Assembly (NCBI RefSeq): GCF_019331695.1
Contig: NZ_JAHBBI010000004.1
Span: 1 to 64,000, forward strand
From: Bifidobacterium pluvialisilvae
Lineage (GTDB): Bacteria; Actinomycetota; Actinomycetes; Actinomycetales; Bifidobacteriaceae
Direction: 5' to 3'
DNA: 64,000 bases
Made by a program: the position numbers and the translations under genes
Shown here: positions 3,508-51,589 of the stretch, piece by piece
Numbering within the stretch: the stretch's first letter is position 1
Layout of the letters: every line of letters begins with the position of its first letter
Notes under the pieces: model-generated
What the model saw: the letters and a program-made list of their open reading frames with translations, nothing else
Databases searched by the model: none
Told to the model about the DNA's origin: nothing

Positions 3508-4185
3508 ATGACCGAACACGACGAAACCGCGGCAGAGCCCACCGACGCCGCCGAAAACGGCGCCAACGCCGAACCCGCCGAACCCATCGACCATGAGCCG
3601 CTTACCGTGACCTACGAACGGCTGCGCCACTCCGAGGACCCGCAGGAACTGGGGGAGTTCGCCCGCCGTCCGCTGCCCGACCGCAACGACGCCGCGGCGT
3701 TCTCCCGAGCCACCGCACTGCTGGAGGCCGTGGCGGGCAACCACCACACCGCCCTCGAGGACCGCATCTACCTTGCGCAGACCATGCCGTTCCCGAACGT
3801 GCTCGTCAAACTCAGCGAGGATCCCGAATCGGCGGTGCGCAAGGCCGTCGCCGAAAACACCAACGACAAGAACTGGCTCGTCGGGCGGCTCACCAAGGAC
3901 GATGACGACGACGTGCGCGCGGCGGCGCTCGCCAACCCGAAGACGTCGTGGAAAATGCGCATGGAGGGGGCCGAGGACGACCGCAACGGCGCCGACGTGC
4001 TCGAACGGCTGTCGCATTTCGGCGTGGACGACGACAAGCCCGGCCCCGACGTGCTGACCGCCATGATCCGCCGGGCCGTCGCGTTGAACCCGAACACCGG
4101 CGAGGAGACCCTCACGCGTCTGGCCGACGACCCGGACATCCAGGTCCGTCACGCCGTGGAGCGCCGCCGGGGAACCCGGTCGTAG
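3508..4185 (+). CDS. HEAT/LRV-type repeat protein of unknown function
   Basis: This 225-aa soluble protein has a disordered acidic, Ala-rich N-terminus (about 35 residues) followed by helical repeats. The repeat signatures are NVLVKLSEDPESAVRKAVAE, then WLVGRLTKDDDDDVRAAALA, and near the C-terminus LTRLADDPDIQVRHAVERRR. This fits leucine-rich-repeat-variant/HEAT-like scaffolds that bind proteins or nucleic acid. No catalytic motif is seen. It starts 9 nt after the YigZ-family stop and may be leaderless. Similar Bifidobacterium proteins are generally called hypothetical, and no function is proposed here. Confidence 0.7.
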   Translation: MTEHDETAAEPTDAAENGANAEPAEPIDHEPLTVTYERLRHSEDPQELGEFARRPLPDRNDAAAFSRATALLEAVAGNHHTALEDRIYLAQTMPFPNVLVKLSEDPESAVRKAVAENTNDKNWLVGRLTKDDDDDVRAAALANPKTSWKMRMEGAEDDRNGADVLERLSHFGVDDDKPGPDVLTAMIRRAVALNPNTGEETLTRLADDPDIQVRHAVERRRGTRS

Positions 4186-4261
4186 GAGGGGCGACGCCGT
4201 TGTGGAGCCGGGGCGGCGCAACTTTTTCGTATCCGGCAGGTTAACTTGGGTATGTCAAACG

Positions 4262-4295
4262 TTGCAGGTGCCGATTTCGGGGTTAAGCTGGTCGT
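4262..4295 (+). promoter_or_regulatory. Candidate promoter for malQ, probably leaderless
   Basis: TTGCAG at 4262-4267, a 16-nt spacer and TAAGCT at 4284-4289 form a plausible sigma-70-type promoter. Six nt separate the -10 from the ATG at 4296 and no Shine-Dalgarno sequence is visible, which fits a leaderless mRNA of the kind common in Actinobacteria. Confidence 0.45.
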
Positions 4296-8334: not shown

Positions 8335-8545
8335 AGAAAGATCCTTCGACTCGCTTCGCTCGCTCAGGATGACACAAACAGGTGTGCTTGCTCAGGATGG
8401 CACGAACAGGCGTGCTTGCTCAGGATGACACGAACAGGTGTGCTCGCTCAGGATGACATGGCGCTATTTCGCCATCCTGGGCGGTGCCTTGGTGCTTGTT
8501 GTGTCATCCTGAGCGGAGGCCGCAGGCCGGAGTCGAAGGATCTTC
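8335..8545. repeat. Dispersed intergenic repeat, family A (TCCTTCGACTC...CTCAGGATGAC)
   Basis: The sequence contains the sense motif GATCCTTCGACTCGCTTCGC and CTCAGGATGAC, several short tandem units (GCTCAGGATGACACGAACAG-like, about 30 bp) and the inverse motif GTCATCCTGAGCGGAGGCCG...GTCGAAGGATC at 8502-8542. The inverted motifs could fold together. The same family recurs at 45.8-46.1 and 51.4-51.6 kb. No ORF is supported. Confidence 0.75.
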
Positions 8546-16501: not shown

Positions 16502-17082
16502 ACGCTTGGCCGGTTTGTCGGGGACGATAGCTCATGGTCTCCTCACGTCTTCGAGGGCAGACTCTCGGTCCGGTCCGGCAGAGGCCGGTTACGCCGCACC
16601 GACATCCTAGATCTGCTGTCTGCCACGAATCGACATACCCGTTCATATAGGGGTTTGTGGGTCTCCCGTGTCGCTATTTGTGGGTCTTCTGTATTGCTGC
16701 TTGCTGCTGTGGTTGTCCCGCATCGGCATAGTGGGTCTGTCGCATCGGTTCGTGGGTCTCTCGCGTCGGTTTGTGGGTCTGTCACGTCGGTTCGTGAGGT
16801 CTCCCGCGTCACGGCTGTAGGGTCTGCGGTGTTGTGGGCCTGCTGTGACGCGTTCGTGGGTCTCTCGCGTTGGCGTTATGGGTCTTCCGCGTCACTATTG
16901 TGGTTGCCCGCTGGCGTTGTAAGTCTCCCCGTGTTGACTTGTGGGTCTGTGGCATCGGCATAGTGGGTCTGTCGCGTTACGACTATGGAATCTGCGGTGT
17001 TGTGGGCCTACTGCATCGCTGTTGTGGGTCTTCTGTTTCGGTTCGTGGGTCTGTCGTTTCGCGTTTGTGGGTCTTCTGCGCT

Positions 17083-17290
17083 GGTTTGTGGGTCTTTCCG
17101 ATTATGGTGGCGGTTTTGTGGGTCTGGCATGTTCAATAACCGTGGGCAAAGTCGTTCATATAGGGGTTTGTGGGTCTGTGAAGTACATGAGGAGCCGAAA
17201 AATCGTGTCCTCGCGAACCGATGGACCCACAAGCCGAAATTGGCGTGTGCATAGACCCACAAAACCGAGAGTGGCGGACCGTTGGACCCA
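17083..17290. repeat. Long direct repeat flanking the AbiEi-like gene, left copy
   Basis: About 208 bp closely match 18960-19165 by eye. Shared stretches include TTTCCGATTATGGTGGCGG and GTGGGCAAAGTCGTTCATAT and the core element. The two copies bracket a 1.9-kb unit containing the AbiEi-like gene. Confidence 0.8.
17170..17230. repeat. GTGGGTCT-N45-(G/A)GACCCAC core element, copy 1
   Basis: GTGGGTCT at 17170-17177 faces GGACCCAC at 17223-17230 with 45 nt between them. The inner sequence contains TACATGAGG and GTGTCCTCGCGAACCGAT. It marks the point where array orientation flips. Confidence 0.75.
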
Positions 17291-17429
17291 TAAATCGAGA
17301 GTGGTGAGCCGGTAGACCTATAAAACCGAAGAGGGGCAGGATAATAGGTCGATTTGCGTATGAATCGTATGGATGACGAATGGCATGCCATATATTTCGT
17401 ACATCGTCGTCTACTCGTGCATTGTCTTC

Positions 17430-17580
17430 GCTGAGCAAGGGAGCGAGGTTGCGTGAGGCTGGGCGCGATCGTGTGAAGCTGAGCGAGGTCTCGTAAGGTT
17501 GTACAAGGCCGAGCGAGGCCGAGCAAGAACGCGTGAGGCTGGGCGAGGCTGCGTGAGGCTGAACAGACTGAATTAATCTG
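17430..17580. repeat. Degenerate tandem repeat (GCGTGAGGCTG-GGCGAG type)
   Basis: Repeated GAGCGAGG, GCGTGAGGCTG and GGCGAGGC words recur every ~10-25 bp over about 150 bp between the left array and the AbiEi-like gene. No gene is supported on either strand. Confidence 0.55.
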
Positions 17581-17771
17581 AGCGGAGGAGCTTTGTGAAG
17601 GTGGGTTGCCCGTATAACCATGTATATGTGTGCATGCATACGTATATCTATATGCATATATAGGGCGCGGCACTATGGACGACACATTGGCGCATTGTGG
17701 ATAATGATCCCATTCGTCCACATGGTCCGTTTTTCGTATGCCGGCCGTGGATGATTCGATATCGTCGGCGT

Positions 17772-18725
17772 ATGAGAACCAATATTGAATTGAATGACCG
17801 CCTTCGTAAGGCGGAAACCGACGGATTGTGCGTATGGGGTGTCGACAGCGCCCAGCGGCAGGTGCTGCGTAGGAGAGAGAAATCGGGGGAACTGATACGT
17901 GTCGGCGCGCGATGTTTCGCCCGCGCCGACTACTGGAAACGTCTTTCCCATACGGAACGGTTTCGTCATTATATCCGGACATTGGCCCGTATCCATCCGC
18001 ATTGGGTGTTCGGTGGTCCTACCGCTGCGGCGATACATGGCATCAGCGATTCGAGAAGACTGATGAGCACGGTGCACAGGATGACCAACCGCAATGCGAT
18101 GACGCGGGGTGGCGATATCGTTCGATGCCATTTCATCAAGGAGATGGAATACGTCGTTGTGGATGGCGTCCGTGTCACGACGCTGGAGAAGACCGCGTTC
18201 GACTGCTCCCGTTGGCTGGATCTTCCTGATGCGCTGCCGATTCTCGAGGAGATTCTTCGGCAGCGGCGAATGGGCAAGCAGCTTCTGGAACGTTTCTTCC
18301 TCACCGCGTCGGGGCACCATCGTGGAAAGGCTCTTCGTGCGTTGCGGTATGCGAACGGCAGAACGGAGAACGGTGGGGAAGCGTACGTCTTCGGTGTGAT
18401 TGTGGATGAGGGGTATATGCCGCCGCGGTTGCAGGTGCCGTTGCCGTGCGTGAATGAGAACGGCAATCCCGACCGTGTCGATTTCTTCTGGCGAGCCGAG
18501 GACGGACGGACCATAGCGGGTGAACTTGATGGCCGTATCAAGTATCGAGACCCTTCCATGTATAGAAACGGCAGTCTGCCTGACACGATCATCGCGGAAA
18601 AGGAACGGGAGGAACGTGTGCGTCTCGTGGTCGACGCCATGTTCCGATGCTCCTTTGCGGAGGCGTTGCAACGGGGTCCATTGATTCGAAAGCTCGACCA
18701 TGCCGGGGTTCCGAAGATTCGATGA
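17772..18725 (+). CDS. AbiEi-type antitoxin-domain protein with nuclease-like C-terminus
   Basis: This protein (317 aa from ATG 17772; GTG 17697 and ATG 17751 are in-frame alternatives, none with a strong Shine-Dalgarno sequence) has two apparent parts. The N-terminal ~110 residues resemble the winged-helix AbiEi/type IV antitoxin domain: LRRREKSGELIRVGARCFA, then FGGPTAAAIHGI. The C-terminal part contains PDRVDFFWRAEDGRTIAGELDGRIKY, in which spaced D, E, D and K residues recall a DUF559/Vsr-like PD-(D/E)XK nuclease core. No AbiEii nucleotidyltransferase toxin is adjacent. It stands alone between two GTGGGTCT arrays. Codon use is less GC-rich than its neighbours. Function is unknown; a defence or repeat-binding role is inference. 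Confidence 0.6.
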   Translation: MRTNIELNDRLRKAETDGLCVWGVDSAQRQVLRRREKSGELIRVGARCFARADYWKRLSHTERFRHYIRTLARIHPHWVFGGPTAAAIHGISDSRRLMSTVHRMTNRNAMTRGGDIVRCHFIKEMEYVVVDGVRVTTLEKTAFDCSRWLDLPDALPILEEILRQRRMGKQLLERFFLTASGHHRGKALRALRYANGRTENGGEAYVFGVIVDEGYMPPRLQVPLPCVNENGNPDRVDFFWRAEDGRTIAGELDGRIKYRDPSMYRNGSLPDTIIAEKEREERVRLVVDAMFRCSFAEALQRGPLIRKLDHAGVPKIR

Positions 18726-18959
18726 TGATGGTGATTCGGAATGGTGGTCCGTTTACTCCAGGGATTGCACGATTTGCGGGTCTCCTATTTCGGTTCGTGG
18801 GTCTTCCGCGTTACGGCTGTATGGGGTCTGCGGTGTTGTGGGTCTGCCGTGACGCGTTCGTGGGTCTCTCGCGTGCATTGTGGGTCTGTCGTTGGCATTG
18901 TGGGTCTGTCGTTTCGCGTTTATGGGTCTGCCGCGTCGCGCCTGTGGGTCTCTCGCGTC

Positions 18960-19165
18960 GGTTTGTGGGTCTTTCCGATTATGGTGGCGGTTTTGTGGGT
19001 CTGGGATGTTCAATAATCGTGGGCAAAGTCGTTCATATAGGGGTTTGTGGGTCTGTGAGGTACATGAGGGGCCGGAAATCCGTGTCCTCGCGAACCGATA
19101 GACCCACAAGCCGAAAATGGTGTGTCAGCAGACCCACAAACCCGAGAGTGGCGAACCGGTGGGCC
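18960..19165. repeat. Long direct repeat flanking the AbiEi-like gene, right copy
   Basis: The partner of 17083-17290, in the same orientation and with only scattered substitutions by eye. Recombination between the copies would remove or duplicate a 1877-bp unit containing the AbiEi-like gene. Confidence 0.8.
19047..19107. repeat. GTGGGTCT-N45-AGACCCAC core element, copy 2
   Basis: GTGGGTCT at 19047-19054 and AGACCCAC at 19100-19107 are separated by 45 nt. They extend to a 10-bp perfect inverted repeat (TTGTGGGTCT / AGACCCACAA). Confidence 0.8.
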
Positions 19166-19612
19166 CACAACACCGAGAACGACGTTTCGATGGACCCACT
19201 AAACCGAGGATGGCGTACGGGTGGGTCCGCAACGCCGAGAGTAACGAGCCGATAGGCCCATAACGCCGAGAGTGGAGGATTGATGGACTCACAACGCCGA
19301 GGATGGCGTACGGATGGACCCACAAAGCTGAGAGTGACGTATCAATAGACCCACAAAACCGAGATTGACGTTTCGATGGACCCGCGAAGCCGAAATTGGC
19401 ATATCGACAGACCCACAAAACGGTGGGTGGTCGGTCGTTTGGTCACAACGGGTGGGGCGGTTGGCGGCGAGCAATGCGGAAATACGTCGTGAAGGCTTGA
19501 AAATCAAGGTGATTATGACGGTCGGACATGATTGGACATCGCGCGACACGCCCGAATTCTGCTAGGGGCAGGGGTTGTGCTTTAATAATCAAGTTGCCTG
19601 TTTTGGGCTCGC

Positions 19613-34687: not shown

Positions 34688-34736
34688 ATCGTCAAACCGT
34701 AAAGTCGTCAAACCGTAAAATCGTCAAAACCGTAAA
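34688..34736. repeat. Three tandem CGTCAAACCGTAAA-like units
   Basis: About 14-16-bp units (CGTCAAACCGTAAAG, CGTCAAACCGTAAAA, CGTCAAAACCGTAAAG) lie immediately before the third GTGGGTCT core element. Confidence 0.7.
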
Positions 34737-34797
34737 GTGGGTCTCATCGATTATGAGGGAGGACTTGGTGACGTCTCCATGTATGTCCTAGACCCAC
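34737..34797. repeat. GTGGGTCT-N45-AGACCCAC core element, copy 3 (upstream of truA)
   Basis: GTGGGTCT at 34737-34744 and AGACCCAC at 34790-34797 are separated by exactly 45 nt, as in the two array arms 15 and 18 kb away. The inner sequence shares an ATGAGG word at a similar offset. Here it stands alone, without array units around it. Confidence 0.75.
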
Positions 34798-34854
34798 AAA
34801 CCTCGTTATGAACGATTTGACTCGCCAAGTAGGACGTATGGCAAAGTAGTACGT

Positions 34855-45764: not shown

Positions 45765-46068
45765 CGCCAATGTCATCCTGAGCGGAGGGCGTAACTCCTA
45801 CCCCTGTCATCCTGAGCGAAGGACGGAGTCCGGAGTCGAAGGATCTTTTCGTCCGGCCCTCAGGTTGGATGCAGATCCTTCGACTCGCTGCGCTCGCTCA
45901 GGATGACAAGGTGGGTGTTGTGCTCGCTCAGGATGACAAGGTGGGTGTCGCGCTCGCTCGGGATGACAAAGTAGGTGCTTTCTCCCGCTCAGGATGACCA
46001 AGGTGGCGGCTCGTCGTTCGGGGTGGCAACAGTGGTGGACCACCATCCGGGATGACAATGTATAAGGA
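45765..46068. repeat. Dispersed intergenic repeat, family A, between rbfA and truB
   Basis: This stretch holds inverse motifs (GTCATCCTGAGCGGAGGGCG at 45771, again near 45806), a GTCGAAGGATC...GATCCTTCGACTC pair at 45835-45885, and then a ladder of CTCGCTCAGGATGACAAGG-like units about 30 bp apart to 46060. Nothing coding is seen in the 342-bp gap. Confidence 0.75.
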
Positions 46069-48629: not shown

Positions 48630-48739
48630 CGCGAGTTGTGGGTGTTTGATTTGCGATAACGGTACTTGGCTCTACGGTATTGCAACGTTTCTTCCTCTCT
48701 AATCGGCATTCTCTCCGAATCAAACACCCACAACTCGCG
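48630..48739. repeat. 110-bp element with perfect 22-bp terminal inverted repeats
   Basis: CGCGAGTTGTGGGTGTTTGA plus TT at 48630-48651 is exactly inverted at 48718-48739, enclosing 66 nt without an ORF. The size and perfect ends look like a MITE-type or structured RNA element. The GTGGGTGT core resembles, but is not identical to, the GTGGGTCT motif of the arrays. It fills most of the 309-bp gap between ribF and the SDR gene. Confidence 0.8.
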
Positions 48740-49650: not shown

Positions 49651-50117
49651 CGCAGGGTTCTCATGGTCGTTGTGCTTTCGTGAAGGTGCGGCGGGATGGG
49701 TGTGGCGTCGAGTCTCTCCCTCCGTCACGCCTGCGGCGTGCCACCTCCCTCGTCAGAGGGAGGTTGGTTTGTTTGGGTTGTGCTTTCGTGAAGGTGCGGC
49801 GGGATGGGTGTGGCGTCGAGTCTCTCCCTCCGTCACGCCTCTGGCGTGCCACCTCCCTCGTCAGAGGGAGGTTATTAAGGAATGGACTAAATATCTAATA
49901 TCGTGAGAATGATTGGACGAAGTGGCGTGTCGGTGTCATCTCGGGGACACATAAACGCGTCCACGAGGTAACAAGCCGAACTTAGACTCCGTTCTAGATT
50001 GCACAGCAAGGCGGTCGTCGAACGTCGCAACGAACGGTATTCGACGACCTGCAAGCGCGTGATCGAACGAACACCTGCATCGACGTGGAAGCCACGTCAC
50101 AGCGGAAGGAGCATGAG
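49651..50117. other. Intergenic region upstream of the aminotransferase
   Basis: No gene is seen. It contains the tandem family B repeat (49673-49875) and, nearer the aminotransferase, an inverted repeat GTCGTCGAA (50014-50022) / TTCGACGAC (50040-50048) that could be an operator or leader hairpin. Confidence 0.55.
49673..49875. repeat. Dispersed repeat family B, two tandem ~108-bp units
   Basis: Two head-to-tail copies of a unit starting TGCTTTCGTGAAGGTGCGGC and containing CTCCCTCCGTCACGCCT, GGCGTGCCACCTCCCTCGTC and AGAGGGAGG. Unit starts are at 49673 and 49781. CCTCCCTC and GAGGGAGG can pair. The same two-unit arrangement recurs at 55.97-56.13 kb. Confidence 0.8.
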
Positions 50118-51377: not shown

Positions 51378-51575
51378 ATCCTGAGCGAAGGGCGCAAGCC
51401 CGAAGTCGAAGGATCTTGACCGAGTCGATGGTGCTGCGTGCGGCATTGTCGAGGGCATAGCCCGAAGTCGAAGGATTGTTGACGCTGCGAAAGGTGTCAA
51501 AGATCCTTCGACTCCGCCGCAAGCGGCTCCGCTCAGGATGACAATAGAGGGGCGCCGCTCAGGATGACAGTGGAG
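51376..51575. repeat. Dispersed repeat family A after the aminotransferase
   Basis: It carries CATCCTGAGCGAAGGGCGCA...GTCGAAGGATC at 51376-51415, a partial second copy (GCCCGAAGTCGAAGGAT near 51460) and the inverse GATCCTTCGACTCCGCCGC...CTCAGGATGAC at 51500-51543, followed by a short CGCTCAGGATGAC unit. The opposed copies could form a long stem-loop. Confidence 0.8.
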
Positions 51576-51589
51576 GGCTTTCCTCAGAC

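What the first reader, a model, noticed from the sequence alone, without database searches (positions are those of the whole stretch)
16628..19432. Two-armed GTGGGTCT octamer array around an AbiEi-like gene
Both sides of one gene carry degenerate arrays: 14 exact forward GTGGGTCT octamers on the left and 9 on the right, then a polarity switch at a core element to reverse ACCCAC units (about 33-bp period on the right arm, about 21-bp period for many forward units). Forward and reverse halves are complementary, so DNA or RNA from each arm could form a large multi-hairpin or cruciform. I know of no named element with this layout. A binding platform for the enclosed protein, a structured non-coding RNA, or a repeat-expanded mobile element are all possible.
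Basis: partly seen in the sequence, partly recalled or inferred. Interest (0 to 1): 0.78.

Follow-up and report, generated by a model that had tools for sequence, protein, structure and literature searches.

The report
Nuclease gene with its own repeats
A bacterial gene for a DNA-binding, nuclease-like protein sits between arrays of its own short DNA word, and the same word is scattered through the genome; relatives of the gene have different words of their own, which suggests an unrecognised family of paired nucleases and dispersed repeats in bifidobacteria and some other gut bacteria.

Summary
In detail: 14 and 9 exact GTGGGTCT octamers lie left and right of the gene. But the two "arms" are two complete elements: forward boxes, a roughly 98-bp near-palindromic core, reverse boxes. 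The 11-bp box occurs 167 times in the genome (reversed control 0), 14 of them beside the gene, in 40 arrays in the stretches read.

Best reading: a REP/RAYT-like pairing of a gene and its dispersed repeats, with a non-transposase nuclease. DNA binding and mobilisation are inferred.

The parts
16655..17262 (+). Array element 1: 17 forward TTGTGGGTCT-type boxes (at most 1 mismatch), core, then 2 reverse boxes
   Evidence: repeat families
17138..17235 (-). Near-palindromic core of element 1 (polarity switch)
   Evidence: model R1, 83.8 bits, E 2.4e-25; this core is one of the 24 the model was built from
17772..18725 (+). AbiEi-like protein, 317 aa: residues 2-195 AbiEi fold, 199-314 Vsr-like PD-(D/E)XK fold
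18774..19418 (+). Array element 2: 11 forward boxes, core, then reverse units of 31 bp (5 boxes with at most 1 mismatch)
19015..19112 (-). Near-palindromic core of element 2, same orientation as core 1
   Evidence: model R1, 79.7 bits, E 4.6e-24; also one of the 24 cores of the model
34733..34825 (+). Solo core element without a long array, in a second intergenic region of the window
   Evidence: model R1, 72.4 bits, E 9e-22 (one of the 24 cores of the model); at this site G005 has the same kind of element, G004 a palindrome with another word (read by eye), G002 none seen
48636..48733 (.). Possible remnant: one forward and one reverse box 88 bp apart
   Evidence: one-mismatch boxes only; not found by model R1 at E <= 0.01

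Best explanation
A gene-plus-cognate-repeat system that works like the REP/RAYT pairs of other bacteria but with an unrelated enzyme. SHOWN: AbiEi-like genes whose products keep the residues of a Vsr/PD-(D/E)XK-like C-terminal domain are, in about 60% of the loci examined, flanked on both sides by arrays or palindromes of a word particular to that gene lineage; the five such words tested are dispersed through genomes whose gene carries them; words change between species while the layout (forward boxes, palindromic core, reverse boxes) persists; the gene is under purifying selection in the nine pairs tested. INFERRED: the N-terminal winged helix binds the word, repeated on one face of the helix; the nuclease domain nicks or cuts at or near the palindromic core; repair or recombination then copies the element, which keeps arrays growing, spreads them between intergenic sites and rewrites them when a new gene variant takes over. 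The array-flanked gene would be the autonomous unit, and the dispersed arrays non-autonomous ones.
For: Flank association: 61 of 102 loci against 58 of 4040 permuted flank pairs, 0 of 152 same-genome windows and 0 of 85 ordinary genes; after collapsing at 60% protein identity 26 of 51 against 18 of 2998, with Bifidobacteriaceae 20 of 36 and Coriobacteriia 6 of 15 (taxa assigned by me from record titles). Dispersal of five words read from gene flanks, with copies lying beside the gene in brackets (counted by me from the listed places, for the first word): TTTGTGGGTCT 167 in own genome [14]; ACGGATGGGAACC 18 in G000 [3] and 24 in G005 [5]; GGTTATAACGCA 48 in G002 [14] and 44 in G004 [8]; GTGCGGGTTGYGGACGG 44 in Thermophilibacter mediterraneus [8] and 0 in 3 other genomes; GTGGGCATAGACSG 59 in B. 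biavatii [6], 45 in B. miconis [6] and 0 in 2 others. Reversed-pattern controls were 0-2 per strand and genome. Switch at one locus: one chromosomal site (flanks on both sides align) has the ACGGATGGGAACC variant in G000 and G005 and the TATAAC variant in G002 and G004, and genome-wide copies follow (18/24/7/4 against 3/17/44/48 for G000/G005/G004/G002). Beside rpsJ G005 has a solo element where G004 has element-gene-element. Of eight G000 array sites whose flanks align to freshly fetched G004 stretches, six show no GTGGGTC box and no R1 match there, one has a TTGGCCGAACC palindrome and one an array of GGTTATAACGCA. Protein: E203, D237, E251, D253 and K257 kept in 98-99 of 99; dN/dS 0.065-0.25 in 9 of 9 pairs; 55-63% identical to orthologues in five genomes while the neighbours found there are 87-99%.
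Confidence: 0.72

Rival explanations
1. Regulatory or chromosome-organising system: the AbiEi-like protein is an architectural or regulatory DNA-binding protein, and the dispersed arrays are its maintained binding sites (autoregulation at its own gene, regulation or compaction elsewhere); the nuclease domain is secondary.
For: Spacings are close to multiples of one helical turn; arrays are intergenic by a home-made gene caller, one overlapping a gene end by 22 bp; AbiEi and Rv2827c are reported to bind inverted repeats and autoregulate (PMC7319586, abstract seen); boxes are more alike than spacers between orthologous arrays, 0.70 against 0.57 of aligned sites (biased by the aligner and by choosing boxes in G000; flanks are 0.71).
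Against: Words and array positions turn over between sister species; only 3 of the 50 arrays with both flanking genes called lie between divergent genes, where promoters would be regulated; active-site residues are near-invariant; two paralogues in one genome (G000; G002) have different words.
Confidence: 0.17
2. The arrays are ordinary dispersed repeats (MITE-, BIME- or RAYT-driven, or slippage products) spread by another enzyme, and AbiEi-like genes are passengers or frequent insertion neighbours.
For: Single arrays are tandem and could grow by duplication; copies persist in genomes without a gene flanked by that word; RAYT genes were not looked for.
Against: Specific two-sided association with this gene family, 61 of 102 against 0 of 85 and 0 of 152, with a different word per lineage and joint change of gene variant and word at one locus.
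Confidence: 0.08
3. Structured non-coding RNA: each arm is transcribed into a multi-hairpin RNA that guides or inhibits the protein.
For: The cores are near-palindromes; outer words of the two arms change together between species.
Against: Within the G000 family the covariation term is 0.12 kcal/mol with one of 13 pairs showing a double change, and the predicted pairs leave the inner arms largely unpaired; one sub-threshold Rfam match outside the arrays. Paired change between species fits a DNA dyad equally well.
Confidence: 0.03

Closest known systems
REP elements / BIMEs with RAYT (TnpA-REP) genes, 'REPtrons'
   Same: Gene flanked by its cognate palindromic repeats, the same repeats dispersed in intergenic DNA, copy number correlated with presence of the gene, co-divergence of gene and repeat, gene evolving faster than neighbours (PMC2817692: abstract and the section 'Evolution of RAYTs and REPs' read; PMC8266576: abstract and outline).
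   Different: The protein is AbiEi-like plus PD-(D/E)XK-like, not an HUH tyrosine transposase; repeats are arrays of 8-12-bp boxes at near-whole helical turns switching polarity at a core; the two cores around the window gene are in direct, not inverted, orientation.
AbiE type IV toxin-antitoxin, antitoxin AbiEi
   Different: No toxin gene recognised beside the window gene (flanks not searched with a toxin model), an added nuclease-like domain, and dispersed arrays.
Vsr / DUF559-type endonucleases
   Different: Fused to an AbiEi-like part; no such Pfam model reported at E <= 1.
Homing endonucleases (recalled, no call)
   Same: A nuclease gene lying inside its own recognition sequence and spreading by repair would look alike.
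   Different: Here the sites are arrays with many copies per genome that lack the gene.

Membership tests
REP/RAYT (REPtron) | HUH/Y1 tyrosine transposase encoded between the repeats | tested here: not met
   Window protein: only a sub-threshold AbiEi_4 hit in Pfam at E <= 1; model is AbiEi fold plus Vsr-like fold
REP/RAYT (REPtron) | Gene flanked on both sides by cognate repeats | tested here: met
   window gene; 61 of 102 relatives against 0 of 85 and 0 of 152 controls
REP/RAYT (REPtron) | Cognate repeats dispersed in the genome, tied to presence of the gene | tested here: met
   five words; exceptions: GTGGGTCT copies in G004 and G005 and GGTTATAACGCA copies in G005 without a gene flanked by them
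REP/RAYT (REPtron) | Flanking repeats in inverted orientation | tested here: not met
   both cores around the window gene are on the minus strand; other loci not scored
REP/RAYT (REPtron) | GTAG or CGTC tag before a 20-40-nt palindrome | not tested
   -
AbiE type IV toxin-antitoxin | AbiEi antitoxin fold | tested here: met
AbiE type IV toxin-antitoxin | AbiEii nucleotidyltransferase toxin gene next to it | tested here: inconclusive
   the gene stands between the two arrays; the next genes are a sugar transporter (Pfam) and rpsJ (name recalled); no AbiEii model was run on the flanks
Vsr/DUF559 endonuclease | PD-(D/E)XK fold with conserved active-site residues | tested here: inconclusive
Vsr/DUF559 endonuclease | Endonuclease activity | not testable with these tools
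   needs a biochemical assay
MITE / insertion sequence | Defined termini and target-site duplication | tested here: inconclusive
   flanks of the empty sites in G004 are too diverged to place a boundary by eye

The most novel reading that the evidence does not exclude
A previously unrecognised class of nuclease-repeat pairs: proteins made of an AbiEi fold and a Vsr-like nuclease domain, present in Bifidobacteriaceae and Coriobacteriia, each lineage propagating its own private array word through the host genome, with the resident variant overwriting older words in place. A second, independent origin of the REPtron principle, using cleavage by a PD-(D/E)XK nuclease instead of an HUH transposase.
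Probability: 0.6. Interest if true: 0.88.

Novelty: categorically new. Interest (0 to 1): 0.82.

Why it matters
Family models read this protein as a toxin-antitoxin part, yet the window gene stands alone between arrays of a private DNA word. Pairing such proteins with their words gives them a testable substrate and function, explains an otherwise orphan class of dispersed intergenic arrays, and supplies many natural protein-word pairs for working out how AbiEi-type winged helices read DNA. If the arrays are mobilised, it is a way unrelated to HUH transposases for a bacterial gene to seed a genome with palindromic repeats.

Tried and rejected
Polar transcription roadblock or terminator: if arms faced incoming transcription, arm length should follow the flanking gene that points at the array. 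It does not (my tally: both genes rightward, forward boxes exceed reverse in 7, the opposite in 8, 1 tie; both leftward, 6, 3 and 2 ties). Structured RNA. Word recognition by the N-terminal domain alone: not separable. Foldseek against PDB gave no match at E <= 0.001; PDB sequence search with A2 gave none at E <= 1; NCBIfam none at E <= 1. Footprint test on seven orthologous arrays favours boxes over spacers but is biased, so little weight is put on it. Literature: ten searches, all in the open-licence PMC library; no listed row was about these arrays or about AbiEi-nuclease proteins with repeats. That is no proof of absence: only listed rows were seen (20 of 905, 20 of 27, 8 of 11, 10 of 112). 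One passage of PMC11418510 lists an AbiEi gene as up-regulated in a bifidobacterial co-culture; nothing more of that paper was read.

Rows dropped: two false palindrome centres (L001 3034, L018 7611); of the 27 cores printed there, L005 (weak match) and L011 9438 and L020 4009 (99 nt, orientation wrong) before alignment A1 (24 left). In one search two genus hits (L130, L131, taken as pieces of one broken gene) were left out and 22 of 24 used with all 80 loci; records shared between the two sets were collapsed. (residues) and 86 used 99 proteins (L128 and L026 not included, proteins of 200 aa or less left out). A2 holds 20 of the 24 genus hits. Gene counts rest on a home-made gene caller that missed the window's AbiEi-like gene.

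Full report
1. The observation. The window carries 14 exact GTGGGTCT octamers in 16628-17200 and 9 in 18726-19432; the remaining ~61 kb has 1 forward and 3 reverse copies. The gene between them is 17772-18725. The right reverse arm has a 31-bp period. Each side is a complete element of the same build: forward boxes, a core, reverse boxes. The two share 253 bp at 88% identity and both cores lie on the minus strand.

2. It is genome-wide. TTTGTGGGTCT occurs 89 + 78 times in the 2.66-Mb genome, the reversed pattern 0 + 0; 14 of the 167 are in the two elements beside the gene. I read 32 stretches besides the window and found 40 arrays of two or more boxes, intergenic by a home-made gene caller, one overlapping a gene end by 22 bp. 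With 13 arrays of the relative G004, flanking genes were convergent in 20, tandem in 27, divergent in 3 and not called on one side in 3. Same-strand spacings of neighbouring boxes up to 130 bp apart (n = 273) are close to multiples of 10.35 bp (resultant 0.70), and the + to - switch within 130 bp is 55-56, 84-89 or 115-116 bp in 44 of 44 cases.

3. The core. Aligning 24 cores gives a near-palindrome of about 98 bp with nearly invariant GTGGGTC and invariant GACCCAC arms. RNAalifold finds almost no covariation (0.12 kcal/mol), so conservation is of sequence rather than of RNA pairing. A sequence-only model (R1) finds strong cores in G000, G004 and G005, weak ones in G001, G002, G006, G007 and G008 (best E per genome 3e-7 to 1.2e-3) and none in G003. 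In the weak genomes the same layout and a similar centre carry a different outer word: TTGGCCAACCCG, TTTGGTC, CTGGGTATA or TTGGGTGTATCC (read by eye).

4. The gene family. A protein search in the nine genus genomes gave 24 hits. Flanks of several relatives show arrays or palindromes of their own words on both sides, for example ACGGATGGGAACC (G000, G005), CGTTATAACC (G002, G004), AACCCGCAG (G007; in G001 downstream only), CGCCCCAAA (G008, G001) and GACTACCAA (G008); others, such as L024 and L026, show none. A scan of genomes of 84,980 species added 80 named loci in Bifidobacterium, Galliscardovia, Bombiscardovia and Coriobacteriia such as Olsenella, Collinsella and Thermophilibacter (the tool keeps the best 80 of 210 relatives). 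Statistic: a 9-mer found at least twice in each 480-bp flank. Result: 61 of 102 loci, against 58 of 4040 flank pairs taken from different loci, 0 of 152 windows of the same genomes and 0 of 85 ordinary genes. With proteins collapsed at 95, 80 and 60% identity: 54 of 92, 46 of 80 and 26 of 51, permuted 1.4, 1.0 and 0.6%.

5. Dispersal of the flank words. Besides GTGGGTCT, four words read from gene flanks were counted genome-wide (in brackets the copies beside the gene, counted from the listed places). ACGGATGGGAACC: G000 18 [3], G005 24 [5], G004 7, G002 4, five other genomes 0. GGTTATAACGCA: G002 48 [14], G004 44 [8], G005 17, G000 3, five others 0. GTGCGGGTTGYGGACGG: 44 [8] in Thermophilibacter mediterraneus, 0 in three other genomes. 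GTGGGCATAGACSG: 59 [6] in B. biavatii, 45 [6] in B. miconis, 0 in two others. Reversed controls for these four were 0 or 1 per strand. The first two words belong to variants of the gene at one chromosomal site in four species (flanks on both sides align), and copy numbers follow the resident variant. The rule is imperfect: G004 (38) and G005 (24) keep GTGGGTCT copies and G005 keeps 17 of GGTTATAACGCA, although none of their genes found has that word beside it.

6. Turnover at fixed sites. Beside rpsJ, G004 has element-gene-element with a TTTGGTC-type word, while G005 has one element and no gene; the flanks are 86% and 96% identical. 7 of 13 G004 arrays have both neighbouring genes in common with a G000 array, so many arrays are old. 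Eight further G000 arrays could be placed between aligned flanks in newly fetched G004 stretches. In six of them (L004, L006, L016, L059 and both of L015) G004 has no GTGGGTC box and no R1 match at E <= 1. L019 has a palindrome with TTGGCCGAACC arms instead (R1 14 bits), and L067 an array of GGTTATAACGCA beside one GGCCCACAA box. At window 34733 G000 and G005 have the GTGGGTCT-type core, G004 a TTTGGTC-type palindrome and G002 none seen. Whether this is replacement in place or repeated insertion at favoured sites is open.

8. Mechanism. Gene inside its repeats, dispersed copies, private words and joint turnover match the logic described for RAYT and REP (PMC2817692 abstract; PMC8266576 abstract). 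The enzyme is different, so it is not a member of that family. The likeliest working model is binding of boxes by the AbiEi-like part, cutting at or near the palindromic core by the Vsr-like part, and copying by repair. Binding is supported only by analogy with AbiEi and Rv2827c (PMC7319586 abstract); cutting and copying are inference. A host function as a DNA organiser remains possible.

9. Limits. Literature was searched ten times in an open-licence library only. Genome-wide counts cover five words. The domain that reads the word could not be singled out. RAYT genes and toxin partners were not searched for.

Noticed in passing
window 17441-17562: Degenerate 20-bp tandem repeat (GAGCGAGGCCGCGTGAGGCT type, about 6 copies) between array 1 and the AbiEi-like gene, unlike the boxes in sequence.
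   Followed up: no
L012 near 6567, L015 near 132, L020 near 3159: Other long near-perfect palindromes (arms such as GGTGCCAAATGGTCGTTTTT) that may be a further dispersed family or terminators.
   Followed up: no
window 8358-8458, 45889-46006, 51525-51577; L214 1657-1948: Tandem repeats sharing the motif CTCAGGATGACA at three places of the window and a similar stretch in G004, possibly another dispersed repeat family.
   Followed up: no
window 49669-49873: 108-bp unit in 1.9 copies at 97% matches.
   Followed up: no
L197 (B. saguini) and L208 (B. colobi): Both have the core AACGAATTYCGTTGGAAATCC with different outer words (CTACAGTC and CCGTCAGTC) on both sides of their AbiEi-like genes: again a kept core and a changed word.
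   Followed up: partly
L129 (G001): AbiEi-like gene with one word (AACGTAATC type) upstream and another (AACCCGCAG) downstream, possibly caught in a change of word.
   Followed up: partly
L219 (G004) 3988-4292 and G000 C21 near 103624-103828: Site with a GTGGGTCT core in G000 and one GGTTATAACGCA copy about 100 bp away, but a GGTTATAACGCA array with a single leftover GGCCCACAA box in G004: a mosaic of two words.
   Followed up: partly
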